Part shown: positions 14,183-58,116 of the stretch, one piece after another
Position numbering within the stretch: the first letter of the stretch is position 1
How the letters are laid out: each line of letters starts with the position of its first letter
NCBI GenBank assembly: GCA_000310025.1
Contig: FN649743.1
Span: 431,641-495,640, forward strand
Origin: Ectocarpus siliculosus
Lineage: Eukaryota; Sar; Phaeophyceae; Ectocarpales; Ectocarpaceae
DNA: 64,000 nt
Direction of reading: 5' to 3'
Program-made: the position numbers and the translations under genes
The notes under the pieces: model-generated
The model's input: the letters and a program-made list of their open reading frames with translations, nothing else
Database searches by the model: none
What the model was told of the DNA's origin: nothing

Positions 14183-15916
14183 ATGTCGCGTTGCCACATG
14201 AACGAGAATGATACCTTCTCGGCGACAGTAAACGCGTACTCCAAGGAAATGGAAGCAGTCCTTAGCCAGAGGCGGAAAGAGATGAGTCAGGCCTGGGAAG
14301 ACGTGGACCGGGGCTGGCACGAGCTCAACCAATGCAGAATCGACGCCGGCATCACCAAACCCTCTGGCTCCCAGCAAGGCATGCTGAGGTTGAACGTGGG
14401 TGGCTCGCATCTGAACTTCCGCCGCTGCATCCTTGCTGGCAGGAAAGAACCTTCGGCTACCTGGGCCCTGGGCAACCTGTTCGAGAGCGTGTGGGACGAC
14501 CGCCTCCCGCGAGACAGCGATGGACGGATCGTGCTCGACGAGTCTCCGGCTTGCGTCAAGCACCTCATTCACTCGCTCATAGAGAGCTCGGGAGCGGCAC
14601 CGGGCTCCCTACCCCGCGGTGATACCTTAGCCCTAGACGAGATGGTGTACCTGCCCTATGTCGCCCGCGCACTCGGGTTGTCGGCGTATATACCTCGGCA
14701 GGGTATGGAAGTAGTAGGCGGGACAACGAGCCTCAGCCACTGTGAGGTTGGGGAACTGACGGCAACTCTTCAGGGCTGGTGCCCTGGTAACCCCAACACC
14801 ATGCGACTGCTCTACCGCGCCTCTCGAGACGGCTGGAGTCCGTACCCGTTTCATGCTAGTTGCGGGAACAACAGCCCCAACACGATCACGTTGCTAAGGG
14901 TTGGCGCCAGCCAAAGCATCGTTGGCGGCTTCTCGAGCGTGCCTTGGAGTCCTCACGCATACGGTGGGGATTCGATCATGAGCTCTCTCGGGGCGTTCAT
15001 ATTCATGCTCAAAGATAGTGATATGGGAGGGCCCAACAGCTTTCAGCCAGTGAAATGGGGCAAAAGGGACAACAACGGGGGATGCGACGTGGTTGTCGGT
15101 GCCAGTCGCGGGCCTTACTTTGGACGAACCGACTTGGTGGTCAACTTCAACAACTACTTTCCTGTAACTCTTCAGGCACAGCCGTACAGTTACGACGTCC
15201 CGTCAGGCTCAACGTTCCCTAATCTCAACGGACAAACTATCACGGAAATCGAGGTATTTCAAGTGTATTCAGCGGCAGCAACTACATCGTCGCCTTCCAA
15301 ACGCCTCAAGATTCAGGGCCCAGAAGACACTCATGGCGCTGTGAGTACTAGCTCCACGAACACGGCCTCGCGGGAAGCAAACTCCGATGCAGAAACATTT
15401 GGCAATGCAATCGCCGGCGCCCTCATGGAGGAGCGAATCGCATTGCACCAAGCCGAAGCCGAGCTCGAACAAGCACACAGCAAAGCGGCGGCATCCGGCG
15501 ACGCGTTGGCAGCGGTCTACGGTCCCGAGGTCGCACGCGGTGCCATCGATACAGTGGTGGAGCTCAGCGTGCGGGGGACCAGGATGACGACCTTACGCTC
15601 GACTCTGCAGGCCTGCCGCGAGTCCGCCCTCGCCGCTTTGTTCAACGAGGACAAGTGGCCGCCCACCGACAAGGACGTGGACGAGCAAGGCCGACGTCTG
15701 ATCAACTGTAGCCCTGCCGTGTTTCAGAAGGTCTTGGACGTGCTGCGCATGAGGAAGCGCGCGGCCTGGGCAGCTTCTGACCGAGAATTGGCACATGTTC
15801 GTGTGGACGCAGCTGACCGCCCGGCGTTTGATAGTTTTGTCAACATGTACTTCCCGGGCTTCGAGAACTTCATCACGGACATGGTCGTTCCTCAAGGGTC
15901 TGCCCGGAGCGGCTAG
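14183..15916 (+). CDS. BTB-TLDc-BTB protein, single exon
   Basis: This is an uninterrupted frame of 577 codons plus stop. I take the ATG at 14183 because the open frame upstream of it contains no ATG. Residues about 15-60 look helical. A T1/KCTD-type BTB strand (MLRLNVGGSHLNFRR) starts near residue 67 and is followed by a helical part to about 170. A TLDc domain spans roughly residues 210-370, with GWSPYPFHASCGNN, GGFSSVPW, FIFMLKD and the end motif EIEVFQVY. A low-complexity linker with a likely nuclear-type basic patch (SPSKRLKIQ) and a helix follow, then a second BTB-like segment (VVELSVRGTRMTTLRSTL) from about 490 to the end. TLDc proteins are known from oxidation resistance and V-ATPase regulation, and KCTD-type BTB domains from oligomerisation and cullin-3 adaptors. 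Its actual role here is unknown. GC-rich codon use matches neighbouring exons. Confidence 0.88.
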   Translation: MSRCHMNENDTFSATVNAYSKEMEAVLSQRRKEMSQAWEDVDRGWHELNQCRIDAGITKPSGSQQGMLRLNVGGSHLNFRRCILAGRKEPSATWALGNLFESVWDDRLPRDSDGRIVLDESPACVKHLIHSLIESSGAAPGSLPRGDTLALDEMVYLPYVARALGLSAYIPRQGMEVVGGTTSLSHCEVGELTATLQGWCPGNPNTMRLLYRASRDGWSPYPFHASCGNNSPNTITLLRVGASQSIVGGFSSVPWSPHAYGGDSIMSSLGAFIFMLKDSDMGGPNSFQPVKWGKRDNNGGCDVVVGASRGPYFGRTDLVVNFNNYFPVTLQAQPYSYDVPSGSTFPNLNGQTITEIEVFQVYSAAATTSSPSKRLKIQGPEDTHGAVSTSSTNTASREANSDAETFGNAIAGALMEERIALHQAEAELEQAHSKAAASGDALAAVYGPEVARGAIDTVVELSVRGTRMTTLRSTLQACRESALAALFNEDKWPPTDKDVDEQGRRLINCSPAVFQKVLDVLRMRKRAAWAASDRELAHVRVDAADRPAFDSFVNMYFPGFENFITDMVVPQGSARSG

Positions 15917-16464
15917 TGCACCTCATGAGGCGTGGACCGAGGGTGAGACGTTGGTATATGTCGGTTGCGCCAGAGTGTTGCGGTGAGATCTTTCTGTAGG
16001 GTTAGAGATCTCCAAACTCAGGTGGTGTTGGTTGGCGCCAGTAGGATGATGCAATCGTTACCGTCGCGTGATGGGATTTGCAGTCGCGTGGGGCTGGAAT
16101 TCGCCTTGTCAACAGTGAGTCCGGTGATATGTGCTTTCAAATTCACTCGCTTCTGGCACCGACCGTCAATTGTTTGCTCTCCCCTCTTTTTTCCCTTTTG
16201 TCAGTGTGTTAAGGGCTGCCAAGACACGCCGCGCTGAGTCGGTTACTTCCTGCAACGACGTAGCTCACACCGGGCTTTGTTTGTGTGGGGGGGGAGGCGA
16301 AACAATGTCTCGCGTGGTGAGGGTTCTTATTTTGTTCCTGAGCTAGGCTCTGCCTTGTTTGCTATGCATATTTTCATATCACAAAGAGTTGGAAATGTGT
16401 GTTCTTTAACCGGAAACTAGTAACGCAGATGGTGACATATGTATGTAGTGGCCGACACCTTTGT
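15917..16464. other. Convergent 3' region
   Basis: The stop of the plus-strand BTB-TLDc gene (15916) and the stop of the minus-strand zinc-module exons (16465) face each other across about 550 bp. This space must hold both 3' UTRs. No further exon seen. Confidence 0.6.
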
Positions 16465-18800
16465 TCAGCCCGTGCGCAAATACTGGTGCGTTGATATCTT
16501 GATGTTGCCCATGGGTCGGGATTGGAAATTGTTGACGACTTCCTGCCCCGTTCATTCTCGCGTGCTGTTCCCCATGATTTTCTTATGTTTTGCTGTGGAT
16601 GTACTGGCCGTCTCTTGTTGTTGATATAGGTTAGCTTCAATCTGGGAGTGATTGGCAGCCAAAGAGAGTTCGTGCTTGTTTTGATGGCGTGGGCATAGCG
16701 GTGTTCGAAGATCAGAGAATGACGTACCGGGTAGAGTTCAGACGGTTTTTGCATTTGTGAGCAAAACGCCAATCTCTCAACAACAATCTTACCTCTAACT
16801 TGAAGTACTGCTGCAGCGCCGCCGCCTCGTCTCTTCGGATGTTGATGCACAAGTTGTAGTGGACGGATGGGAAGATGTTGACCTCCAGGTGCTTGAACAC
16901 GGACACCTGTAGAATTTCAAGGAATGATTTTCCCACCCATACAATAGTGAAACAATGCATTCAGCCAAACGCGATTGGGCGTGAAACAGAGTGGCGCGAG
17001 ACAAGGAGAAACTCATTCGCCTTCAGTTGGTGCTGGCTGCAGGCCAAAGGGTTGTAGGATTTTCATTCCGGCGGGCACTTCGCACTACTGTACTAATAGG
17101 ACACGCGTTTGCGGATGTATGTTGGCCGCATTGTTCCTTGTCAGCACACGCCTTCCTTGTCGCTCTTCGATGCCCCATTATAATGTGATTCGGGTCTTGT
17201 CACTCGCCTCGGTATTCCCGACGAGGACGGGCGGACCACCGTCTGCCCTGATAGATATCATTATTTCCTTTGGCTTATGCGGTCGGGCGGTGCAGCCTGT
17301 GGCCGTGCTGCCATCCTCGCTTCCGCAGCATGACCATCTCCCAGCTCGCCTTGCCCAGCATGCAAGCGAGAACAACGAGTGAACAACAGACGGAAATTCA
17401 TGGGAAAAAACGAACCGGAACAGTGCTGGCTGTGCGGCATCAAAGAACGGGCCGGTACTACCAAGTACTTCGAAAACACCAAGGCGTTTGGCGCATAACA
17501 ACTGCTGTCTTGCTTACCCTTGAGGCCTGGTGGCGTCGGTGGCATGGCCGACACCGTCGATCACGAATACACCGTCTTCACCGTCGCTGTCGCAGTGAAT
17601 TCTGGCAAAGTCAAACCGGTATGCGGACGTCAGGAGCCGAAGCGCGCGAGGAGCTTTGATCTACCAGTGGTGTGAACCGGAAGATTCCATGGCTCTCTCT
17701 ACTCCCTAGTTATGCCGACCGGTTTGAAAATTCACAAACTTTCTACTCTCTCCGGAAACTCATGTCACATGCAAAGTTTGGAATGTTTGGACATATTTCG
17801 GCCTGCTTGTTTTAGCACAACAGTGATTCTGTTCTGTTCTGTACAACCAAAGACAACGAAGAATTTTCAAAATACTTATGACCAGGACTCTCGAGACTTG
17901 ATTCATGTCGAAAAGGTGCGTAGCTCTGGATGAATATCCGATACGAGTTGAGCGTCATGGCCGTACCGTTGAAAATAGTACCGTAATACGCATATTGTAG
18001 GTTCATACCTGGATAGGCGATTCGATCAAATGAACAGAACTTCCGTAAATACCAAGGAGGTAGAATGCATCTCGAGTTTGACCAACGTGATTTGGTAGTG
18101 GTTTCGTGTCATGATAGAACCTAAGGCTTCTTGATTTCTTCACTAACCCTCCTCCATGCTGTTCGCTAAAACCGTGAAGACCAGGCCCATTGGCAGCGGG
18201 TCAGGGTCGTGTAGTTACCCCAGTGCATCACCCCCATGCCATCAATGCCACCACACGTCCCTTCAAACAACACGGCCACCGATGTACAATCACCCGACCC
18301 ACTCCTCATTCTGAAGAAAATAATTGCGCTGTAGCGAGCTCTATTGTTAGCTAGAATACGTGCAAGAGCAACGTATGGACCCTCACCCTTTCTTATACGG
18401 TACCCTTCAGAGCCATACCGAACATGCTTCATTCGAACCTGCAAGAATCCCACGCATTTTCCTCCGGAATGAACCTCTGCTTGCAAGAGGTGCAGACAGA
18501 CGTGGTCGACGGCTTGCTCGAATCTTGCAGCAGAGTGGGCGAAAGCACCGACCGCGAATCATACTTCACCCTCCCCTCCCTCCCGACGCCGATCCAACTA
18601 CTGCCACCACCACTTGACACGGACGATATATATCGTGAAGGCGAACGGGGCATCACCGCCGCCGCGGATACCGGAGAGGAAGAGACGCTTTGGCTCGGGT
18701 TGGCTTTGCCTTTTCCCGTCTGCTCTCCTCCTCCTCCGCCCCGTGCTCCTCTGTCTGTCGCCCCGGCCGGGGCGAGGCTTCGCACCCAAAGGCGCTCAAT
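16465..18800 (-). CDS. Zinc-module C-terminal exons (end of giant gene or separate gene)
   Basis: Five minus-strand exons join in phase: 18439-18800, 17518-17601, 17208-17349, 16793-16906 and 16465-16542 (stop). The first is Ser/Pro-rich and ends in CTSCKQRFIPEENAWDSC. The second supplies RIHCDSDGEDG, and the third GRWSCCGSEDG with GCTARPHKPKE. Together they give a C-x2-C, C-x2-H, CC, GC-x3-H layout typical of a CHORD-like zinc-binding fold. After it come ISIRADGGPPVLVGNTE, then VSVFKHLEVNIFPSVHYNL, then GNIKISTHQYLRTG and stop. The 17208 exon uses a GC donor (GAG then gcgagt), and the phase still fits. The VFKHLEVNIFP strand resembles the last strand of FMP27/SABRE proteins, which argues that these exons finish the giant gene. 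A link through an uncertain exon near 19.6-19.9 kb is unproven, so a separate gene is possible. Confidence 0.72.
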
Positions 18801-21800
18801 CTGAAACATGACGTTTTGTATGACGACCCCGGACTAGCGGACACCGGAGGGGCGGATGGAAGGGGGTCGGTGTGAGAAACGAAGAGCGGTGAAAAGGGGA
18901 GTTCGCCAAGGTCCATGTCCATGTGTTGCTCTCTCGATCACTGATGGTCTGGACACAATTGTTGCGTACTCCTGGAGTGAAACGATGAATAGTCCTCGTG
19001 GCCAACGGTTAACACCTCTTGTGCATAGACTCCAAAAGCCGAGGCATAATCATTCATCACATTGTTGTCACCAAGGTGCACTCAGAAATACTTTGACGCA
19101 ACGTGAAGTAGGTTGTGAACAGGTGAAACGGTTGGCTCGTCCGGGTCTCGCGGTCCGAGCCCGAGTCAAACTCTCCGCTTCACGCCGGCTACTTCACACG
19201 TAGGTTGTTTACCTCCCTCCGCGTCTGTACTACCATCGATCTGGATGTTCCATACATTCCCGGTCCTCATTTGATGTAGTTCAATCTCTCTCAGCTTTGT
19301 ATTTCTGCTCTGCCTACTCCAGCAAGCATTCATATACATGCCGCCAACGTCTTACCCCTTGTCCGCCTTGCGCCAGATAATTGTGCGTGGATGATAGGCC
19401 TGTCAGCCCCACTTCCATCTGGTCCGAGTGACGTCCCGCCTGCGTTTCATCATCATCATTCCTCAATCAATCATCATAGCGCAACAACTTGCTCGTCGTC
19501 AATGTCAACCATACGCAGGCTGCTTGGGCGTCGCCGTTGTACTGGCTCGATTTTCTATATGTTGTATTCATATATCAGCAGTCAGAAGTCCTGAGGCGAT
19601 CGACAAACTTCAGAGCTAAAACCCCGCTACGCCGAGCAATCCTGGCCCCTCCTCACTTTCTGTTCCGTCTTCGGTCCCATGGTCAGCCTCCATGTGCACT
19701 TCCCGATCCTGTATTCGAGGCGGGTGAGCTCCCGCGGTTGTCCATCCGCTGCTGACCCTGCCGTCGATGTCGGATTCCGTCCTCCTGCCTCCCCGACCCC
19801 TCCCGTCCGTATCCGAGGCGGCGTCACGGGGCACGACAGATTCGCTGTCGCTGTTGTTGCATTTGTTTCCGGTCGTGTTGTTGAGACAGGTCCCGCTGTT
19901 GCGGTGGGTGCCGGGTCTCCGACTGTTGATGAAGTAGCAGCGGCCGCGGCGATGGGAGAGGTACAGCCGGAGGAGGCCTGGGGGGGGATGGGCCCTCCTT
20001 CTCGCCGGGTTCTGCCGGTGTTCAAATATTTGGCATTGTGAATGGCGTTGATGTCCGTTTTGTTGCTGTTGCTGCGGGCCCAAGACCTGAGAGTCTCCTC
20101 CACAACATCCTTGAGGTAGCTCCTTCCGATATTTTTTACCGAAATTCGATGTGCAAGGGAGAAGGGCGACCGTCAGGTAGGATTGGGATTCGACCTAGCT
20201 TGGGGGTGAGAGAGAGATGAGAGAGAGATGAGAGAGAGATCGATGGTGTGAAACGGTGTGTAGCGACAGGGTACTTCCTTCCACTTCGGAGCGCGTTCTA
20301 GATATGGGGGAGAGTCTCAACTCGCCTCTTTCACCAAACACATATATAGTTTGGAACCGTGAACCATGTACCAGGTTTTCTCCATTTGAATCCACCTCGT
20401 GATTTCAGCATGGGTAGTCAATGCCCCCTCGGACAATTGCTACCCCTGCGGTGCTATTGCGAAGGCAAAAAAACATCGACAAGGGTGCCAGAGACTTTCC
20501 TGCAACTGGATCAATGTCAGCGAACGCGCGCGGGGCCGTATCTACCATCACGACCACGACACTATTGCAACTGACCGGCGCTTTTCACCGCTGTTGATGT
20601 TGATGTTGAGGCCGCCTTTGTTGCCCTCTGCGGTGAGGTTCACGGCTTCGCCTAACACCTTGTTTGCGATTGGTGCACCATGATGGTTGGGCGAAGGTGG
20701 AAGGGGAAAGGAGAAGGCAACAAAGAGCGGCCCCGAAGGTATACATGGGCGAATTCCATAGTGGAAGGAATGGAAACAACATGATTTTCTTTCTACCCAT
20801 GCTTGAGGCATCCCGGTCGACGCGAAGAGTATGGCGATATGACCAAAAGCACAAACAAGGCCACGAGGCATCATGGGCCGTTAGCTCGTAGAATCGACGT
20901 GCATTCGATTTCTTTCATAGCAACAGGCCAGGTCGAAAACTTGAAACTACGTCTGCAGCACTTCACAATGTCATAATGTTACCTTGAATTTCAACGGGGG
21001 TCGTTGGAACTTAACGTGTTTGGCAAGATTTCTCGTTATCCACGAAACTCACTGTACTGTAGGTTCTCCGCGGGGTTGGGCGACAAGAACCAGTAAAGAT
21101 CACGGACAAAGTACATCACCTCGCTGTCGATCAAACAAATGACGTTTCCAACAACGTCACCGAAATGGTACAAATCGACCCCGCTGTCCATGCCAGTTCA
21201 ACCGGTTCGACCATGGCTTCCTAGAAAATTGCCAAATGAATGACGTCGACACCTTTTCGCTATCGATGCAGCCTTCGGCCCTCCTCTGCCGTTTGCGCTC
21301 CCGAACCTTGCCGCGGAGCTCAAGAGGCGGCGGGACCAGCAACAAAGTATTCACGACGTCCAGCACCTCGAAGAACTGTCGTCAGATATACATTGCCGGA
21401 CGTAGCGCAAGGTGCACAAGGCGGTTCCGTATTAGATTCAATCAATCGTGTGACAGCTTGGCCGCTACGAAGCGTGCGGACGGTAACATACGCAACAACC
21501 TGCCCACGGTAGAGGACACGCAGAGCGAGTCGGTGTTCATTCTGTGGATGAAGCGTGTAGAGAATCACGACCGTTTGATCCTCAATGTGAGGGTGTGAGG
21601 GCTTGCTGTGCAATCCGTTCGGCGTTGGAAGACACAGAAACGGACAAACAGTGCAGACTGTTAATATTGCAGTCGAACCTACAGTAGGCAACAGCAGGAA
21701 ATTGGTGTTGCTTTCCCTTGGAGACATTTCGTCGGGACCATTAATCGGAAACAGTCCATCTGTACATCCCTACGAAGCCGGAATGAGGCGGGATTGCCGA

Positions 21801-24800
21801 CCGGGTAGGACTTTGTGGGGGCCCAGGTAGTCGTTGCAAGGGGGCCCTGACAATGCGTCTTGCTAGGGAATGATGATAAGTAGATCGGCGTAAAGACCCT
21901 TTCGTCGCCAGTCAAATGAAACGACGGGAGGACGAAGGTGCTCTTCCTTATCCACTAATCGGGCCCTTCGTTCTCATGGAAGTTTTCGCGAGCACAAATA
22001 CCATCCACCAGCGAATACTCACCTGTCGTATTTCGGGTTAGCCGAAAGACTAAGACTATGTAGGCAGAGCCCTGGCTTACTCTGTGCCTAGGAAGTACTT
22101 CATTACCTCAATAGCACACATGGATCAAAGCGCCAATATACCGCCGACATCCAAACCCGACTCGATATTGTCAATACCTGGCGTGAGTCCAGGTCCGAAG
22201 ACAGCTCAGGTACGTCCAAACGTAGTCTGTTTACGGGAGGCCGATTGACCCTCTTCAGCCCCACACCACCACCCGCATCACCGCTACCACCGCCGCCGCC
22301 GCCTCTCCCACCTCCGGTTGGCCCAGCGCTTGTGTTTCCACTCCCGACACGTCTTCCCGCCGATGACTTGCTCAAAGCCCGACGAAATCGCTCTTGTGAC
22401 TCGCGGAGGGGAAGCGTCTCGTGGTAAACGTACAGAGCATCGACCGAAAAGTGCCGCATGACCTAGAAGGTGTCCGAAAAGACGTTGTATAGATCAGAAA
22501 ACGAGGCAAAAGGCGGTATAAAACCACATTCCATGGGCAATGAGAAAATTGGCAACGCAAAGGACAAGGTAACGGCGAAAATCGGCAATCTAAACTAACC
22601 AACCGGAGAGAAATAATGGTCAGTTCGCGAGAGAATACATTGTTTGTGTTCTGCACATGTCAGGCACACACCACCGTACCACGCAACGCCCACAAGCACC
22701 GCTGTGCATAGTTTGCCACACCCACCCAAGGCATTGGCGATAAACGAGCCAACGAACCTACCTCTCGGAGCTCGTCCCTTTCTTCCGTCGCCCCGGCCGA
22801 GATCCCGCCGTCACCGCTCTCGCCACCACTTCCGGCGGCACTCCCGCGGCCCCCAAAACCCGATTCTTCTTTGGTCTTGCCCCTTCCGCCTCCAGCTGCA
22901 GACGCATCAAAAACCCCAGACGGAGACCGAGACTTGACAGGGCGGGAGTGCGACGGGGTGGGGATTCCGTCGTTGGAAAGTGGCACCGAAGGTGTGCGTA
23001 GTTGTGGCACGGTCTGTCTCCCAAATATCGCTTGGAAACGGACGAAGATGAAATCGAATCGACACACACAGCCGGACTCAGGCATGTGGTGCACGAGGAC
23101 AAACGTGACGCCAGTAATCGTAATCGGTTGCGTACTTTTCTCTCGCGACGTTCGGCCACCCACCCACCCCGCCCTCCGTCATGGAAATAACTTGCCGTGG
23201 CAACGTTTATTACGCCACATGTGCCTCCGGAAAACATTCGAACTAACAATGACACTTGGCGGTATACCCTACCCTGTGCCACTTAGCATATATCCCCTGC
23301 AACCGGACGCCGACACTGTCGAAATATGCATGTACGATTGCTTGACCGTGGCTACACCGCGCCGTCATGCACACGTGCCCCTCGTCGGTGGAATGAAGGA
23401 AAAACGTCACCAATGACAAACCCCGGAAGTGCATCATGTCCCCCATCCATACCTCGTCTGTCGAACGCCTAGCACCGTTCTCCGCGCACTCAGCCGCAGG
23501 TATGGAACCAGGCGCCCCGATTGTTGGCCGATCGATAGCCTCGCCGTCGGCACCGGTAGTGCCATCGTTTCTGTTACCAATCGACGTAGCCCCCGCCGTT
23601 CTTGCGGTCGGAGACGCCGGAGATGATGCCGGCGAAGGAGCAAAAAACCGTTTGGCCGGGCTGACATCTCGTCCCGTCTTGGTTTTTACCTCTGCCGCCC
23701 CCCCTTCTGCTCCTGTCGGCAAAAATGGTGATGTCACTGGCGGCGGTCCCGATGATGACGGTGAATTCCGCGTTCTGCCGACTGGGGGGGGCGAGTACCT
23801 CGCGGCGGCAGCGAGCGAGGACTTCGGTGCCCCGCTTCTCGGCGCTGGTGAGACTACGCCCTCAGTGGTTGCTGTTCCGTGCTCTACCCACCTGCCACAG
23901 GAGAGTAGTGGGTGTTGGGGGAAAGGTGGAGGACAGCAAGGGAGGCGGTTACGGGTTGGGTGTGGCGGGAGAACTCACTCCAAAAACGTCTCTGTACAAG
24001 ACCGCACATCAGCGTCGTGAAACAAGCTGAACCACCATAGATCAATGTAGTCGGTAGCCCTTACTGATGCCACCCATGGAACGTTGTGCGTGTGTCCAGA
24101 ATGTTATGCACTAATAGGAGTATATCGTATTTTGAGGCACACGCCTCCTGCTCTCTCCATGTAGACCGTGTTCATGCTTGTAGGCGTCCGCCATTGTTAC
24201 CAGGATACATCGAATGCCAGTGATTCTTCACGCTTTAGTGCCGTTTCTCTTCATCTTTGGGCTCCTCCGAGTTGGCCCTAAGAGCTGTATCCCAAGGGGC
24301 TTCGCCCCAACTCATCCTACCCACCCCGTGCCCAGTTTCCACTCTGTTGAGTCTCCTCAACTTCTTCGGGGTACCCATGCCGTGTCCACCATTCTTACAT
24401 GGTTCTGACTGCATTGGCCCATCCAACATGTGTTGGGTACAACTGTCTACTAATTTTTCCGAATAAGGTGAAACATCAGTCAATCGAAAAGTTGATGAGC
24501 AACGGCAGTCTCTCCCTTCGTGTGTTGGTGTCACTGTTATTGTTGTCACCTGTCAAGCCCTTCCTCTGAAACCGGAAGCGAGAAAACCCTTGCCTTCTCG
24601 AGCTTCACCTTGATATCCTTTCGTCTCAGGGAAGAGAAGTACCCCTATGTTGAAAAACCAACACAGCCGCAACATCGTAGCATGCGAGGAGCGAGGGAAC
24701 GACACCGTGCATTACATTGTGGGACGTCCTTTAGCCCACGAGGTTCTCCGAAGGGTGTCGTGGGCGCCTTGTTGTACTGAAAGGCGGCGTTCATCAGGAT

Positions 24801-33800: not shown

Positions 33801-36800
33801 TGTCGCTCCCGCCCGCGTCGTCGTCGTCCTCCTCCTTGTCCTCCTCGCCCATTGGTTTGCTCCTAGGGAAGGAGTTAGGCCTCCTGGCGTGATCATCGCC
33901 GCTGCTGCTGCCGTTGTTTCTGGGGACACGTTTCAGGGTTCCCCCGTGGACGGGTGATATCCCGAGACTGCCGCCGCCGCCGCTGCTGCTGATTGTCCTC
34001 CTTACGGGTACGGGACTCGTAGCGCGGGATACACACGTTCCTCCCTGTCCCTGCGGAGATTGTCTGTCGCCGCCGCCGCCGCCGATCTTGTCCGGCGATA
34101 TTTCCGCCGAGACCTTGAGTTTCAGACCTGTCGCTCGGTAGGGCGCCCACAAGTCGCTGTGACCGTTGGTGCCCGTGGCAGTGGCGGAGTTGTTGGTCTC
34201 ACTACGGTTCCCTTCGACGGACGGATTGGCAGGACGAGATGCCGGTATCGGCGGGGAACAAAACCCAGCCCCTCCGCCGGAAGAGACGCCGGAAGAGACG
34301 CCGGAAGAGACGCCGGAGGTGGCGGTGGCGGTGGCGGTGGTGGTGGCAATGGCGGCGGCACTGCCAGCGACCGCGCCCCTTCCGTCTTCTCTGCCCTGGC
34401 CGACCGTACCGGCAGTCGAAATAATCTCGAGGTGGTGGCCGTTGGGACCGGCGTGTCCCGCACAGGTCCATGCGATGTCTAGTATCACCATTATCTCCGC
34501 AACGAAGGCGACGCTGGCAAAACGGGGGCAATAAAAAGAGCGGGTGCCATTGACATGAGAAACGTTGAAGTGTATCTAGAGGTCATGCTTCGTGATGCCG
34601 TCGCCTGACGCACGTTTACAACGGGTGTGACGTTCACCCCCTCGCCTCGTTCTTGCGTTCACCAGACCCAGAGTCTCGGTGAATTTCGAGCCATCCTACC
34701 TGCACAACTGCTGGATAACACTGGTACCACTTTGCGCTCACTCCCGCTCTCACCTGTGCCGCGCGCCGAAAATGCCGCCACTGTCACCCAGGCCCTTAGC
34801 TGTCCCGCCGTTGCCGCCGTCGAGGACATCTCCTACCCCCCGCTTCGCCTGGAAAGCGGGGCAATCCATTCGCATCACTCCTCCCACGTTGCTGCTGGGG
34901 AGGCCGCTAACGAAGGGTGCTACCCCCACCGAGTTGGACGGCGAAAGCGACGGAAAACTGCAGCGTCCTTCCTGTTGGCGTTGCGGGTGCGAAGAATTTT
35001 CCTCGGAGGAGAAGGCGTCTGCTGCGACGGCCGCCGCTGAGCCCAACGCGGCAGCGGCGCTTGTTCTTCTACCGTAGACGTTGCCACTACAGCCCCCGCT
35101 GCCGCGTTCGCGGTCGAGCCCGGACAACGGGCACGGAGGAGTTTTGTTGGGATGCTGGTATCGCCTTGAGGCTGGTCGGATCCGCGTGTTCTGCCCTCTG
35201 CTTACAGGGCTCTGACAAGGGCTGGCGTGCGAACTGCTGCTTCCTCGCCGGCGAAGATCTGCGGGCGGGCCTGATGCTGACGGCAACGGAAAAAAGAATA
35301 CAGTTGGGGGGCGAGGGAAAGCTCAGCAGCGAAAGTTCCGCCGCCGGACCACCGCCAGCCCAAACTGTTGGTGCGAAGCTACTCCCGTCCAGGGAGGAGA
35401 AAATCGAGTTGCACGATTTCTTCTCGAGATGTTGCAATCTATCGGAAAAGAAACGGGCCGCGTCAATAACCGCTGAATGAAGCACCTAAGGGTATCTTTC
35501 TGTATCGCAGCCGTTTCTGCGACCCGATATCGCGCGGGAACGGAGAGGGGTTCACGGTGAGCATAGAGTGACTAAGGTCGACTTGATGCGTGGATGTGGA
35601 ACCGTCTGTAAGACGTGTGGAGAGGTTGAACGCATTTTCAAAGGATCTCAACCGCGGTGCCGGTAGGGCGGACAACAAGGCGGACACATTGTGGATTTCG
35701 AGAAGCCTGCGAAGTTGACTACGCCCTTGCTGTTCTCTGTCTTCAGCATTTTCTCCTTGAGACTGTCTCCGGCCCGTAAAGTATGCCGGACGGCTAGTGG
35801 AGCTGCTTGGTGGCAGGGTGCTGCTGGAACTCACCTACGTCCTCCATTCTAAGCACCTCCGCAGGGGGCCGGGCTGGGGTGGAAAGCAAGGTGTGTTGCA
35901 GGTTCAGGTCCAGATGTCCACAAGTGTACGCCACCTAAGAACGGCAAAGAGAGAACAAAAGGTATGAGCTAAACCCTTGAAGGTAAGGCGAGCACCTAAG
36001 TCACCCACCCTTCAAGACCCGGACCGACAAGTCCAGATGACCCACGGCTTCCCCGCCTTATCGCTGTACAAAACCGGGAGCGTTTACACCCGTGCCAACC
36101 TGTTCGTGCGAAACCGATATGACCACTCACTTGTAAATACACGTGTAGACATATGCAGCCAAAATAGTTACGTGACGTACCTTAGCTTTGGACACCAGCA
36201 GCCTCAAACTCGCCCCGAGTGCAGCCGGTGAGCGGCCAAGCAGCGCAGTGACTTCCACCTTGTCCGCGTCGAGAGAAAGCTGTCCATGCAAGAGGCATCT
36301 GTCATCATCCAACCGGATCATACAACCACGCAACCGGAACACATATGAGCGTGTTCATGATTCGAGGCCGTGAGTGGGAGCTAACTCGGTGCGCGCATGC
36401 ACCCATTTGTCAACAACAAGGAAACGGGATGGACCCGATGCTGCTGGTCGCGCCATTTTCTGCGCACACCAGCAAAAAAAACCTTGGCCTGAAGTCGGTC
36501 GACGAAATGGTCGCAAACTATATCGACGTACCAAGGATCTGTGCCACCCCAAAGCTCTCAAGTAATAGAGCTGAGCTATGTAGAGTTATCGAAGAAGGGA
36601 ACGGATCGTGGTCGGGCGGATAGCCTCCATGAACGGTACTCAAACTCAAACGCGCGCGCGCCCGGTCGTCCCACCCTACCTCAGCCTATCCCAGAACTCC
36701 ACATGCGGCGCCGGTACTGCTGTGGGGGCGGTGGACGGTGTGTGATCGGCCGCGCCTTCCCGGCATCCATCGTCTTTCTCTCCATCCACCCCCCCCCCTT

Positions 36801-49622: not shown

Positions 49623-52603
49623 ATGGCTTTTAAGGCGTTCGCTGTGTTGGTGGCTCTGTGCCTTGTTTCGCTGGCGTCTGGGTTCGTCGCACCAACTGCC
49701 GTCGCACGGAATGGTGAGTCTCCTCTGCTTGGTGTTCATGCGATTGATTCCTGGGACAGTATGTTCAAGTGTGTTTCCTCGCTGCGAGGGTTCGGTATAG
49801 CCCGTCCCCCTCCCCAAGACTGATCCCCGGCGAACAGGGCCTTTGGCGCGCCATGCGTATCCAGCTCAATTGCGGCGGGAAGCCGCACGAATCCGTCCGT
49901 GTGCATGCATGAAGCGAACCGGGCGCGCGCTGAAATAGCGATGGCTGTGTCTTGGTTTTACTGAGGGCGAAGGAATGTCGCGGGGTCACAGATTCATGCT
50001 CTCCTCCTCGTTATGGTCGCCCCAACGCAAGGATAGCAGGACTACCCCAACTCCCCTCGGTAACGGAGTCGCTGCGGATTACACCGGTCGCTCTGTCTGC
50101 AATCCGCCTCCTTTTTGACCAGTATCTCTGGTGTGTCTGCGTAAACACACGGAGGACCTCCGTTTTTTCTGACTCGTTCGGGTGGTTCTTGCGGTCGTTC
50201 CTTTTTTTTTCCCTACGCACGGCTGCTGCGCGTACATACATCCCACATACCAAGGTCAAATACGATTGCGTTGCTGAATCAAACGTGTTTACGACGAAGC
50301 CTGGTGCAAGGCATGGCTATGCTTGACACTCGGGCGAAGCCGCCCTGACAAGCTGGAAAATTTATCATCTAGGTTGAAAACCAAACAGCAGGATGCTCAA
50401 GCGCTCACACTGCTGTCACCAATAAACGGCAATGGTATGTTGAACCTCCCGACGGCTTCAAACATGAGCGAAATACGCACCGCCTCACACTGAAAGCTGA
50501 CTCACCCCGGCTGCGTTACGGCTGTCGTAAGATTGTTGCCGCGTGGGCCTGGACGGGAATAGACATGCCCATGAGTTGGTTGCTGGTGGTGGCCTTGCGT
50601 GTGTGTACCCTTGGCATGGTAGTTTGCTGTGTACAAGCGCCAGTCAGGAACGCAAACAGCATTGTGGCAGGCAGTCCACGGAAGATAGCAGTCCCCCTTT
50701 TGCAGCAGACGCCGATACTACACAGCAGTAGCCGACACCTTAACCGGCGAGGAGACCTAACAACATTTTGCTGTACCTGCAGATCAAAAGCTCCCCGTCA
50801 CTGAACCCTTCTCCTCTAGGTTTCGCGACACAAACGGGCATCCATGGGGTTGGTGTATGCACGCGTCCGCGATGGTTTGTTTTCTGCTGTGGTCAGAAGT
50901 CCGTGTTCCAGCCGATACCCTCAGATTGAGACAGAGATGGGACTGAATGGGCTGACGCCATGTTCTTTGAACCCACATTTTTGCGTTCACGCGGGGTTAC
51001 CCGGTGTTCTTTTTTGGAGAGAACCAAGCAAGCGCTAGCAGTTGTCAAGAGGGACGGGGGAGTTATTTCCGAGACCGCAGTTTCAGCTATTATGACGAAG
51101 TAAAAATAGAGCGAGCCTCGCCGCTGCCTCATCCCCACACCTGGAGTAATGAAATGTAAACTCTGGCTTGGCCTTGTTGTGCTACATGGCCCGTGTGACA
51201 TCGGCGGTTGTGCTGCCTGCTATTTACTTACATGTAAGTGAACATTTGCAAAGAGAGTACAAGATGACAGCAGTGCGGGTAGTGGTCAATTCGTCCAAAG
51301 AGCAGTCCTCACCCCGTTCAATATTTTGGTGGTGTTCCTGGACAGGTGCTCACTACACAAGTGTTGCTGTCGCATTTATCACAGTTTCGTTTATATTTTG
51401 CAATTCGAAGCAACTTGTTTCCTCAGGCCTGCTGTCATGTGTTTTTTTTTCGACATCTGAACCTTAAAACCCTCGGTGCGATGATGGGCTTTTTGTATCG
51501 TGGCGCCGAAAATGATGCTTTCTGAAGTAAACAGCTACCATTTATGCGACACATTCAGCGGTCTCGAGAGACCAATACACACGTATGTTAGGTACTTGTT
51601 TTTCTCAACAGATCAAAATGGGCGGTCTGCATGCATGTGGCGTTGGAAACATGTACGCCAGGGACAGGGTAGTCGTTGTGGTGCATTTGGAACTGTCTAC
51701 CGTTGTTGGCTGGGTATCCCTGCACGTGTTTATGCCCTCAGTTGCGCTAATCCTCTACAACGATTTGTACACCGGGTGGTGCCGACCGTGTATGATCATA
51801 CACGCATTTCACGACTGCGAGTTACCTAACCCCTCTGCCATGAAAACCGGGGAGAGGGTATATATATTGGTCAGGATTACGTCGTGGGGATGTGGCAGAT
51901 AGATAGGTATACGAGTGAAAGCGCAAAGCATCATTCGTCATTGTTATTTTTTGGGTTGGCGCATAACTTGCTCGTGGACCCTCTGAAATCCCCCGCAGAA
52001 CGATTGGCGAAGAGTTCACGGTGTGGTATGCACAGCTTCCCCCGAACAGACACGTTTCATCCTGGCCTATCGCGTTGAACATGGTCAGACCCCGGTGTCA
52101 GCAACATGGGCGTTGTGATTTTGTACCAGGCCATGTTGTACAGTTTCTTGTCAACCGAGAATGCTCGGCGCCTGCCGCGGCAAGGACCAAAACCAACCCA
52201 CATCCAGCTCATCTCGCGATTTGAGGACATGCCCAGTTGTGCATGCATACATACATCCCTAACGACCCCCCCCCCTCCCCTCCGATGTTCCGGCTATCGT
52301 AACCCTACAGTGGCGATGAAGCAGGCCGTTCAGATGAGCGCAAAGTCCAGCTTGCCGGCGGCGGCCGTCCCTGCGGCTGCACTCGGGGCGGCGGCGGCGG
52401 TCTGCTCCCCGCTCGCCTCCTTCGCGGCCGACCCGTCCAGCGCGCTGGCGCAGCTCCCCACCGAGCTCCTCGCGGACAACGGCACTGCCACCCTCGCGAT
52501 CGTCGTGGGCATGTTCATCCCGTGCTCGTTCCTCATCACGCTGTACTTCGGTACCGAGCAGAAGAAGAAGGGCGTCATCGAGGGGCAAGAGATGAACAAG
52601 TAG
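49623..52603 (+). CDS. psbM: Plastid-targeted single-helix protein, probable nuclear PsbM
   Basis: Two exons, 49623-49713 and 52311-52603, join across a 2.6-kb intron (AATG then gtgagt; ccctacag then TGGCG) in phase 1, giving 127 residues. Residues 1-20 are a signal peptide (MAFKAFAVLVALCLVSLASG) followed by FVAP, the ASAFAP-type site of complex red plastids. A transit peptide rich in Ala/Ser/Lys follows, then a second hydrophobic Ala-rich stretch ending SFAA-DPSS, which looks like a thylakoid-transfer cleavage site. The mature part of about 58 residues has one membrane helix, TLAIVVGMFIPCSFLITLYF, then a charged tail. The P-x2-F-L-x3-Y-x2-T pattern matches the helix of photosystem II subunit PsbM (VPTAFLLIIYVKT). 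As far as I recall, psbM is missing from red-lineage plastid genomes. Another small photosystem subunit cannot be excluded. Confidence 0.72.
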
Positions 52604-55833: not shown

Positions 55834-58116
55834 CTACCGAAGGGTGCCGGTTAGCGGGGATCTCCACGCTCCATCCCCTCCCTCGGGGGGGTCATCGTAG
55901 GAAGCGTGTTTCCCCTTGACGCACCCCGGGTGGGAAGGGTCGGTCTCTCCGCAGCAAGACCAGAAGTACTCCAGGCCGGAGGTGTCGACGTCGTTGATAC
56001 GGTTCAGTCGCCCGCTGAACAGACCCGGGTGATACCTGCTTGTTGTTGCGGTGATGGTGATGGTGGTAGTCGTGGTGTTGTAGTTGGTCCGAAAGCACCC
56101 GAGTGCATGGAGGGGGGAACGAGTTGAGGGGGTGGGTGCGGAGACAGAACCAGCAGAGGCAGGACAAATAATTATAGGCAGACAGGCAGTTAGGTCGACA
56201 GGGAGAAAAAGAGGGGGGTAGAGGGAGGAAGGAGGAGGAGGAGGAGGAGGAGGAGACGAAAAAGAAACTCAGTAAGGAAGGGGGCCGAACAAACCGTCTT
56301 CAGGCAAGCTCATCTATGTTGTTATGTTCTTCAAAAAACACGCTGGGATCCAAGCACGTGCGCGAAGTCCCGGCAAAAAAAACATCGAGGGCCAGCACCA
56401 ACTTCTTCCGTTCGTGTCGAAGAATCTCATCGACACAACCCTGCGCCCATCCCCCCCATCCACATCGCTCAGGTTCTGCCCAAGACATACGGACACCATC
56501 AACCACGTCGGTACACCCGAACAAACAGGAGGTGAACAGCTAATAGCTCACGCATCCGACGGACCCACAGCCTAGAACTCACGAGCAAGATCCGTCCACG
56601 TTGTCGTCTGGGTTGAATTGTTGCTTGCAGTTACGGCAGGTGGACGTGGCCGTAGAGGTTCTCACTACGTCGCCTCCGGTTGCCGCTGTAGCCTCACCGT
56701 CGCCGCTCTTTGTTGCGACTACCACTTGTCCTGACGAGGGTTAGTTGTCGAATAAATACATTTGTCGTTAGTTCCACGGCAGAACAAAACGTCGTATGCA
56801 TAGATATTTCGTTGGTTCCACGGGGGATTGAAAAGGCGCGCGGCGGGGGGGGGGGGGCGAACTCTTATGTTTTGCATGCCTTAGCGGATAGACCATTGAC
56901 CACGCGTCCTCGAGAGGACGGAGCACTGTTCCCACAGGATCGATCACCGATGGCCAATCGTTCCTTCCTACTTTGCCAAAGGTGGCTCAAAAAATGTCGT
57001 CCCTAGTCTATCTATCCTATCGATATCACTTCCCGCCTCTTCAACCCACTTCCTATGCCCCAGTAGGGCTACCGTCTTTTCCTCGCTATTCCATGTCTCT
57101 AACATCTCCCTGTACCTTCCTTCTATGTTGTCCCAGTTCAGTCATGTACACTCCCTCTCCTTGTACAACGAATACTCCGCAACTACATGACCCGGTCTTC
57201 GCACTCGGCTTCGCAATCACATTTGAACTTGTCGTCTTCATCGTCGCCTTCCGAAACCTTCGTCTACGTTCTCGAAGGCCAATGTCGCCGGCCCTGAATT
57301 TGACCTTGAGCTTTGTCCCTGCATCCATTGGTCCGTGTAGGTACTCCTTGAACCCTATTCCAACATTCCGTACACTTCTAGATCCTCCTTTCGTTGGTTT
57401 CTTCTTCTCTCTCAGCACAAGCAACAGATATCTTCTCCTTGAACCGTGCGAGCGCCGTGGAGGGGGGGGGGGATGAGACTCTCGCGAAATAGTAGCGGCG
57501 AACACTACAACATGTACAGATGTGTGGTGTTCCTCTATCCAATCGTGGGTTACCGCTTTCCGCATGGTTGATGCCAACCACCATCATTGGTGCGACACAT
57601 GACACACATGCGGCCATCCTGATGAGTTGCAGGAACCTCTGTTCGGACGTGTGCTCGGTACAAGGACTACAAGCAGTAGGGAGGTAGTGTACATAAAACA
57701 AGCAGTGCCTCCGTTGGTCGACCATTCTCTGTATAGCCGATACTCCGAGTAGGCAGTTTGGTGCAGTGCACGAGGTGTTGGGTTTCTATTGTAGTCCGAA
57801 AAAAACATTCCAGCATTAACTGTTGTAGGGTGTTTGTGTGAAAGGAAAGCACTGCTAGAGAGTGTGTTGGACTATTACACTTCGAAAGATATTCCGCAAA
57901 AAAGGTCCACAGCAGTACACATGACCTGCGTGCGCACCCACCTCCTTGCCGCGCGCCTGTTGTTCTGCAGCAACCCCTTGTTCCCGTCATACCCGACCGA
58001 CCAGCAGCGACAGCGAACTGAGGTGCACCAAGGAAGCCTTCGGATCCTGGAGTAACCCCCACGAGCGCCGCAGCAAGCAGCACCAGGCACGACGCGCTAC
58101 GCCGTGACCAAAACAT
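55834..58116 (-). CDS. Plastid-targeted zinc-module protein, three exons
   Basis: Exons 57942-58116, 56583-56730 and 55834-56035 join in phases 1 and 2 with consensus sites (AAGGAG then gtgggt; ctcgtcag; TGCTC then gtgagt; aagcag) to give 174 residues. Residues 1-26 are a signal peptide (MFWSRRSASCLVLLAAALVG) followed by EGFLGAPQFA, a Phe-containing variant of the ASAFAP plastid signal. After a Gly/Thr-rich transit part comes TCRNCKQQFNPDDNVDGSC, then SYHPGLFSGRLNRI, YFWSCCGETDPSHPGC and KGKHASYD. The ligands are therefore C-x2-C, C-x2-H, CC and GC-x3-H, a CHORD-like zinc-binding layout. The tail is short and Gly/Pro-rich. The same module occurs in exons 17.2-18.8 kb. Intron 1 has been entered by repeat B and a fossil element. 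The function is unknown; the targeting is inferred from the presequence. Confidence 0.78.
56232..56263. repeat. (GGA)n microsatellite
   Basis: About nine gga units within a purine-rich tract, located in intron 2 of the plastid zinc-module gene. Confidence 0.85.
56838..57000 (+). repeat. G-tract-bounded repeat (family B), copy 1
   Basis: A G-run is followed by gcatgccttagcggatagac and cctcgagaggacggagcac, ending near gccaatcgttccttcctac. The same sequence occurs inverted at 62150-62313, differing at only a few positions. The first 45 bases are related to those of family A. It sits in intron 1 of the plastid zinc-module gene. Confidence 0.8.
57001..57580 (-). mobile_element. Fossil transposable-element coding fragment
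   Basis: The minus strand carries a decayed coding region, the first part of which (57001-57145) is homologous to the end of the window (63830-64000, plus strand). Acidic, Cys-containing pieces follow upstream. The element family cannot be assigned from this piece. It is a broken fossil lying directly next to repeat B, suggesting that the two belonged to the same element. Confidence 0.55.

What the first reader, a model, noticed from the sequence alone, without database searches (positions are those of the whole stretch)
16465..18800. CHORD-like zinc module next to or inside a lipid-transfer protein gene
Five minus-strand exons with matching phases give CxxC, CxxH, CC and GCxxxH followed by HKPKE, a Gly-Pro-rich strand and VFKHLEVNIFP. 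If they belong to the BLTP2-like gene, this is a lipid-transfer protein with a zinc module placed just before its last groove strand, which I do not know from animal, plant or yeast members. If not, it is an undescribed small protein family.
Basis: partly seen in the sequence, partly recalled or inferred. Interest (0 to 1): 0.75.

Follow-up and report, generated by a model that had tools for sequence, protein, structure and literature searches.

The report
Zinc module inside a lipid-bridge gene
In what looks like an algal genome, a long gene for a protein of the kind that carries lipids between membranes appears to have a small zinc-binding module, of a type known from other eukaryotic proteins, built into a loop near its far end, where it may help the protein grip a partner.

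Summary
Four minus-strand exons (18833-18439, 17601-17518, 17349-17208, 16906-16793) join in frame and give all eight zinc ligands of a CHORD domain in order (C-x2-C-x13-C-x2-H-x32-CC-x10-C-x4-H). A second copy, module B, lies about 37 kb away in its own small gene (58116-55834). It matches the CHORD domain of CHORDC1 (E 2.3e-5) and is split by an intron at the same place and phase. Module A is most likely inside the Hobbit/BLTP2-like gene: one exon holds a Hobbit-like strand plus the first module half, another the second half plus the next strand. It sits in a 165-residue insert where the Hobbit profile has about 22 positions (2108-2129). A condensed model of selected exons reaches Hobbit at 26.5 bits (E 1.1e-6, cut-off 24.5), but a longer model gives 21.0 and single pieces stay below the cut-off; support for the two fusion exons one by one is modest. 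No transcript or relative could be checked. Best reading: an ER-anchored lipid bridge with a built-in zinc docking module near its distal end. RAR1's Hsp90 contacts are mostly missing, so it is CHORD/Btk-like, not a canonical CHORD. New variant of a known kind.

The parts
18439..18833 (-). Exon: Hobbit-like strand (SGVVIQNVMFQIERLWVRSLAP), low-complexity linker, first half of module A (CTSCKQRFIPEENAWDSC). Start could be 18800.
   Evidence: Open in one of three frames over 395 nt; anchored Hobbit score 155.4 bits against 149.4, 151.4 and 143.8 for three shuffles
17518..17601 (-). Exon: middle of module A (R)IHCDSDGEDGVFVIDGVGHATDATRPQG, with the H of C-x2-H
   Evidence: Phase 2 to 2, acceptor 4.3, donor 6.1
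17208..17349 (-). Exon: second half of module A (WSCCG..GCTARPH) followed by Hobbit-like strand EIMISIRADGGPPVLVGNTE; GC donor
   Evidence: anchored Hobbit score 157.6 against 148.6, 156.9 and 152.0 for shuffles (weak)
16793..16906 (-). Exon: VSVFKHLEVNIFPSVHYNLCINIRRDEAAALQQYFKLE, Hobbit-like strand after the module
   Evidence: Acceptor 6.3, donor 7.2; with the strand before it adds 13.8 bits to a Hobbit anchor, extending the match to profile 2156, against -0.8 to +1.6 for three shuffles
19356..19439 (-). Exon upstream of the module: AGRHSDQMEVGLTGLSSTHNYLAQGGQG
   Evidence: Phase 0 to 0; anchored Hobbit score 144.2 against 138.7 for one shuffle
19657..20172 (-). Exon whose 3' end (RELTRLEYRIGKCTWRLT) is Hobbit-like; its 5' limit is not settled
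   Evidence: Anchored Hobbit score 74.6 against 63.9, 61.0 and 61.4 for shuffles
21253..21375 (-). Exon FFEVLDVVNTLLLVPPP..., Hobbit profile up to 1930
   Evidence: Pfam Hobbit, with the next exon in this list: E 0.013, E 0.0027; below the cut-off alone
22178..22462 (-). Exon ending in RLRLDVPELSSDLDSRQ, Hobbit profile from about 1892
   Evidence: Same matches; joins the exon at 21375 in phase 0
35835..36298 (-). Two exons (36298-36181, 35934-35835), FWDRLRCLLHGQLSLDADKVEV..., Hobbit profile 1244-1292
   Evidence: Pfam E 0.0045, 14.5 bits
48466..49215 (-). Likely first coding exon of the Hobbit-like gene: hydrophobic helix then strands (MGALLPGLVGLAVTAAVFQRELSAWIVSAGLKYFLR...)
   Evidence: Read from the sequence; no Pfam match; AlphaFold model too poor to use (pLDDT 38.0)
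16166..16249 (-). Possible last exon: EVTDSARRVLAALNTLTKGKKEGRANN and stop
   Evidence: Acceptor 3.7, phase 0; Hobbit test inconclusive (106.0 against 102.9, 104.5 and 104.9 for shuffles)
55834..58116 (-). Module B gene, three exons (58116-57942, 56730-56583, 56035-55834), 174 aa, one CHORD-like module, presequence-like N-terminus
   Evidence: PDB 2yrt E 2.3e-5; Pfam BTK E 0.0014 and CHORD E 0.03, both below their cut-offs

Best explanation
The gene on the minus strand from about 49.2 to 16.2-16.8 kb encodes a Hobbit/BLTP2-like bridge protein, and a CHORD/Btk-type double-zinc module sits in a 165-residue insert in a loop between two conserved strands near its C-terminal end. Mechanism (inferred): an N-terminal hydrophobic helix holds the protein in the ER, the beta groove carries lipids, and the zinc module projects from the rod near its distal end as a protein-docking knob that helps to choose or hold the acceptor membrane, a job done in human BLTP2 by other projecting loops and a basic tail (FAM102-binding hairpin, SH3-binding loop; PMC12406788, passages). 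Shown: ligands, phases, shared exons with Hobbit-like strands. Inferred: zinc binding, lipid transfer, position in space, partner.
For: All eight CHORD ligands in order with C-x13-C-x2-H and C-x4-H conserved (ligand numbers of RAR1 from passages of PMC2935968). Module B hits 2yrt at E 2.3e-5, the A+B profile at E 2e-6 with both halves in register, A and B E 1e-8. Same intron position and phase in both modules (phase 2, directly after the third Cys). Flanks fit consecutive stretches of PF10344: RELTRLEYRIGKCTWRLT 74.6 bits against 61.0-63.9 for three shuffles, the next 44 residues 119.7 against 105.8-109.5, the stretch after the module 95.6 against 81.0-83.4. Collinear weaker matches at profile 1244-1292 and 1894-1929; condensed 281-aa model 26.5 bits, E 1.1e-6, above the 24.5 cut-off. 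The first and last module halves lie on exons that also carry these strands.
Against: The longer condensed model (1462 aa) gives 21.0 bits, below the cut-off. Five of seven gene pieces gave no Hobbit match. The 78-aa stretch before the module with only a downstream anchor gave no gain (90.9 against 91.2, 94.7, 91.2 for shuffles and 93.3 for the anchor alone). Per exon the margins are small, least for EIMISIRADGGPPVLVGNTE (157.6 against a best shuffle of 156.9). The recalled BLTP2 sequence did not pick these exons out of 1945 window ORFs by phmmer. The stretch 21253-19.7 kb has no settled exons, so continuity is not proven, and the family's last block was not found for certain.
Confidence: 0.6

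Rival explanations
1. Module A belongs to a separate small gene downstream of the Hobbit-like gene, starting for example at the ATG in NVMFQIERL (about 18809).
For: The stretch 21253-19.7 kb holds no exon chain that I could settle; an in-frame ATG exists; a free-standing small module protein exists in the same window (module B gene).
Against: Stretches both before and after the module score in PF10344 at consecutive positions, so such a gene would itself have to carry a piece of Hobbit; exons 20172-19657, 19439-19356 and 18833-18439 join in phase 0.
Confidence: 0.17
2. The module is in the lipid-bridge protein but only stabilises a long loop, with no partner of its own.
For: Module A has lost the HPG motif that B keeps (HCD in A, HPG in B), and lacks most known CHORD contact residues.
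Against: All eight ligands are kept and it is a folded type of module known elsewhere for protein contacts (PMC2935968, PMC12129344, passages).
Confidence: 0.13
3. The module is a true CHORD that recruits Hsp90 or SGT1, as in RAR1.
For: Best solved-structure match is a CHORD; the Trp before CC is kept.
Against: RAR1's His188-Asp189 loop and the Phe204, Phe207 and Met208 between CC and GC have no counterpart in A or B, nor does Trp217 (residues from passages of PMC2935968; compared by eye). Pfam CHORD is below its cut-off for B and silent for A.
Confidence: 0.04
4. The join is wrong: one or more exons are not spliced together and no complete module is made.
For: GC donor at 17208, weak donor at 18439 (3.1), weak acceptor at 17349 (1.2), neutral codon scores of part of the module.
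Against: Module B, found independently, has the same order of motifs and the same intron place; 0 of 200,000 shuffles show the pattern.
Confidence: 0.06

Closest known systems
Hobbit/FMP27/BLTP2 family (Pfam PF10344)
   Same: Collinear matches at profile 1244-1292, 1892-1930 and, by anchored tests, 2051-2156; very long gene with a hydrophobic N-terminal stretch
   Different: 165-residue insert with a zinc module where the profile has about 22 positions (2108-2129); family's last block (2259-2360) not found for certain. In Levine 2022 (PMC7613979, passages) the Hobbit accessory part named is a helical bundle, and 'zinc' does not occur in the main text
CHORD domain (CHORDC1 PDB 2yrt; RAR1 PDB 2xcm; Pfam PF04968)
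   Same: Eight ligands in the same order; C-x13-C-x2-H; W before CC; GC-x4-H
   Different: C-x2-C instead of C-x4-C; CC-x9/10-C instead of CC-x15-C; single; most Hsp90 and Sgt1 contact residues absent; below Pfam's cut-off
Single CHORD of Rex3/REXO1 exonucleases (PMC12129344, passages)
   Same: A single, divergent CHORD fused to an unrelated large protein
   Different: Different host protein; sequence not compared here
Btk motif (Pfam PF00779)
   Same: WSCCG...GC half matches weakly (A 15.9 bits, B 20.1 bits)
   Different: Below the cut-off of 24; the modules have a second zinc site. That CHORD and Btk fingers are related is the title of Kaur and Subramanian 2018, seen only in a reference list
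Accessory domains in VPS13 loops (UBA, lectin, PH, C2; PMC7613979, passages)
   Same: Folded non-groove domain inserted in a loop of a lipid bridge
   Different: Other bridge family, other domain

Membership tests
CHORD | Eight Cys/His zinc ligands in the order C, C, C, H, CC, C, H | tested here: met
   Both modules
CHORD | RAR1 spacing C-x4-C-x13-C-x2-H-x14-CC-x15-C-x4-H | tested here: not met
   x13, x2 and final x4 kept; first pair x2, H to CC x32 (A) or x24 (B), CC to C x10 (A) or x9 (B)
CHORD | Pfam PF04968 curated cut-off (24.6 bits) | tested here: not met
   B gene 15.4 bits, E 0.03; A no match
CHORD | Similarity to a solved CHORD structure by sequence | tested here: met
   2yrt: B E 2.3e-5, A+B profile E 2e-6; A alone E 0.52, behind three unrelated repeat proteins
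CHORD | Hsp90-contact residues (His188, Asp189, Phe204, Phe207, Met208 of RAR1) | tested here: not met
   Compared by eye using residue numbers in passages of PMC2935968; Trp194 is kept, and a Phe precedes the loop in both
CHORD | Two zinc ions bound | not testable with these tools
   -
Btk motif | Pfam PF00779 curated cut-off (24 bits) | tested here: not met
   A 15.9, B 20.1 bits as fragments; 12.5 (A) and 18.9 (B) in longer models
Hobbit/BLTP2 | Pfam PF10344 curated cut-off (24.5 bits) | tested here: inconclusive
   Condensed 281-aa model of selected exons 26.5 bits; longer 1462-aa model 21.0; single pieces 13-15.3
Hobbit/BLTP2 | C-terminal conserved stretch (profile about 2051-2156) on both sides of the module | tested here: met
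   Anchored scores above all shuffles, three per test: two tests; stretch after the module. Not met for the 78-aa stretch with only a downstream anchor
Hobbit/BLTP2 | Last conserved block (profile 2259-2360) | tested here: inconclusive
   A candidate peptide scored 71.1 against 65.0, 62.6 and 65.9 for shuffles, but without a settled exon; tail candidate 106.0 against 102.9-104.9
Hobbit/BLTP2 | N-terminal transmembrane helix | tested here: inconclusive
   Hydrophobic start read from sequence; helix 5-41 in a model of pLDDT 38

The most novel reading that the evidence does not exclude
A lineage of algae has rebuilt the distal end of the BLTP2 bridge: a CHORD/Btk-type zinc module, gained as an exon-split unit of the same origin as the small presequence-bearing module B protein encoded 37 kb away, serves as a built-in, possibly zinc- or redox-sensitive, docking head that sets where ER lipids are delivered.
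Probability: 0.25. Interest if true: 0.65.

Novelty: new variant of a known kind. Interest (0 to 1): 0.45.

Why it matters
How BLTP2-type bridges choose the acceptor membrane is an active question; in humans adaptors and a basic tail do it (PMC12406788, passages). A bridge with the docking module in the same chain would make that step testable in one protein, and would show that Hobbit proteins, like VPS13, can take up folded accessory domains. It also shows a CHORD-like module, known mostly from co-chaperones and Rex3 nucleases, in a membrane-contact setting.

Tried and rejected
Gene finding: my simple HMM fused everything from 63.0 to 0.1 kb into one gene of 5312 codons and chose another frame at 19922-19657 and 19439-19356, so its continuity is no evidence; exons near the module were set by hand. 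Relatives: four viral-contig scans and one genome-contig scan. Two loci came back, both judged chance: L001 (a short RADGGPP match in a phage-like contig) and L002 (the frame around the match reads as a membrane transporter in a Bacteroides MAG). Hobbit in the genome of L002: 0 of 1, controls 0 of 14, which says nothing about absence. PDB search with a 199-aa flank construct: no match. Single-sequence AlphaFold models were useless (pLDDT 45.2 and 38.0), so no fold search was run. Rfam and tRNA scans: none. Phmmer of the recalled BLTP2 sequence against window ORFs did not favour the exons. Pairwise scores against it: 22 of 2000 shuffles reach the stretch before the module, 9 of 2000 the stretch after it.

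Considered and rejected: 16465-16641 as a certain fifth exon; the module as a canonical Hsp90-binding CHORD; literature absence as proof. Nine literature searches showed no report of a zinc module in a Hobbit/BLTP2 protein in their listings, which are partial (for instance 20 of 1276); the seven papers listed have no 'zinc finger'.

Full report
What is there. On the minus strand a long gene starts near 49215 with a hydrophobic stretch (MGALLPGLVGLAVTAAVFQRELSAWIVSAGLKYFLR) and runs to 16.8-16.2 kb. A plus-strand BTB_2 gene (14198-15916, 25.4 bits, E 1.8e-5) faces its 3' end.

The module. Exons 18833-18439 (or from 18800), 17601-17518, 17349-17208 and 16906-16793 join in frame and give C-x2-C-x13-C-x2-H-x32-CC-x10-C-x4-H. 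RAR1's CHORD has C-x4-C-x13-C-x2-H-x14-CC-x15-C-x4-H, from ligand numbers in passages of PMC2935968. One of 1944 other ORFs in the window shares CC.{7,18}GC.{4}H: module B, in a three-exon gene at 58116-55834. B hits the CHORD of CHORDC1 (2yrt, E 2.3e-5); A alone reaches it only at E 0.52, behind three unrelated repeat proteins; a profile of both reaches E 2e-6 with both halves in register. A and B are 25/73 identical (E 1e-8 for that comparison). In both, an intron in phase 2 follows the third cysteine: GAT TCT TGC AG| in A, GGA TCT TGC TC| in B (sequences). Together these make chance unlikely. The weak points are the GC donor at 17208, weak sites at 18439 and 17349, and codon scores near zero for part of the module.

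Is it inside the lipid-bridge gene? Pfam Hobbit (PF10344, 2372 positions) matches collinear pieces: 1244-1292 (E 0.0045) and 1894-1929 (E 0.0027), each below the cut-off; five other pieces of the gene gave nothing. A condensed model of selected exons without the insert reaches 26.5 bits (E 1.1e-6, cut-off 24.5); a longer one with it 21.0 bits (E 4.9e-5). I then replaced parts of it by window peptides and by shuffles of them. RELTRLEYRIGKCTWRLT scored 74.6 bits against 63.9, 61.0 and 61.4 (without it 61.7); the 44 residues from exons 19439 and 18833 scored 119.7 against 108.7, 105.8 and 109.5; the stretch after the module 95.6 against 82.0, 81.0 and 83.4 (anchor alone 81.8), extending the match to 2156. 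The 78-aa stretch before the module with only a downstream anchor gave no gain (90.9 against 91.2, 94.7 and 91.2; anchor 93.3). Exon by exon: 18833 strand 155.4 against 149.4, 151.4 and 143.8; 17349 strand 157.6 against 148.6, 156.9 and 152.0; 19439 144.2 against 138.7. So the flanks fit consecutive Hobbit positions, and the two outer module halves lie in exons that also carry these strands. By this register the insert of 165 residues between LAP and EIM replaces about 22 positions (2108-2129). Continuity with the exons at 21253 and above is inferred: the stretch 21253-19.7 kb has no settled exons.

How it most likely works. BLTP2 proteins are ER-anchored bridges; in human BLTP2 a projecting two-helix hairpin binds FAM102, another loop binds SH3 proteins, and the basic last 59 residues help to reach the plasma membrane (passages of PMC12406788). 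A folded zinc module on a loop near the distal end most simply adds a docking site there. Shown: ligand pattern, phases, common exons. Inferred: zinc, fold, outward position, partner. The RAR1 type of Hsp90 binding is unlikely: of the contacts named, the Trp before CC is kept, but the His-Asp pair and the Phe and Met residues between CC and GC are missing in A and B; so is the Sgt1-contacting Trp217.

Known or new. VPS13 proteins carry folded accessory domains in their loops, and single divergent CHORDs occur in Rex3/REXO1 (passages of PMC7613979 and PMC12129344). For Hobbit, the passages name a helical bundle, and 'zinc' does not occur in the main text of PMC7613979. Nine searches found no report of a zinc module in a Hobbit protein in their listings, which is not proof. 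No relative could be examined: the sequence collections on hand are of viruses, plasmids and prokaryotes. I therefore call it a new variant of a known kind.

Noticed in passing
58116-55834 (minus strand): Three-exon gene for a 174-aa protein with one CHORD-like module (module B) and an N-terminus that looks, by eye, like a signal plus plastid-type presequence (MFWSRRSASCLVLLAAALVGVTPGSEGFLGAPQF). A plastid-directed CHORD-like protein would be unusual.
   Followed up: partly
49623-52599 (plus strand): Small gene between the module B gene and the Hobbit-like gene: presequence-like first exon (MAFKAFAVLVALCLVSLASGFVAPTAVAR) and a later exon with a weak Pfam PsbM match (15.1 bits, E 0.021, cut-off 24); possibly a nuclear-encoded photosystem II subunit.
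   Followed up: partly
14198-15916 (plus strand): Gene model with a BTB_2 match (25.4 bits, cut-off 21.4), facing the 3' end of the Hobbit-like gene.
   Followed up: partly
16793-15917 (minus strand): The last block of the Hobbit family was not found for certain; a peptide LWLPITPRLKLTYINNK scored 5-8 bits above its shuffles but has no settled exon. The protein may end early or have small undetected exons.
   Followed up: partly
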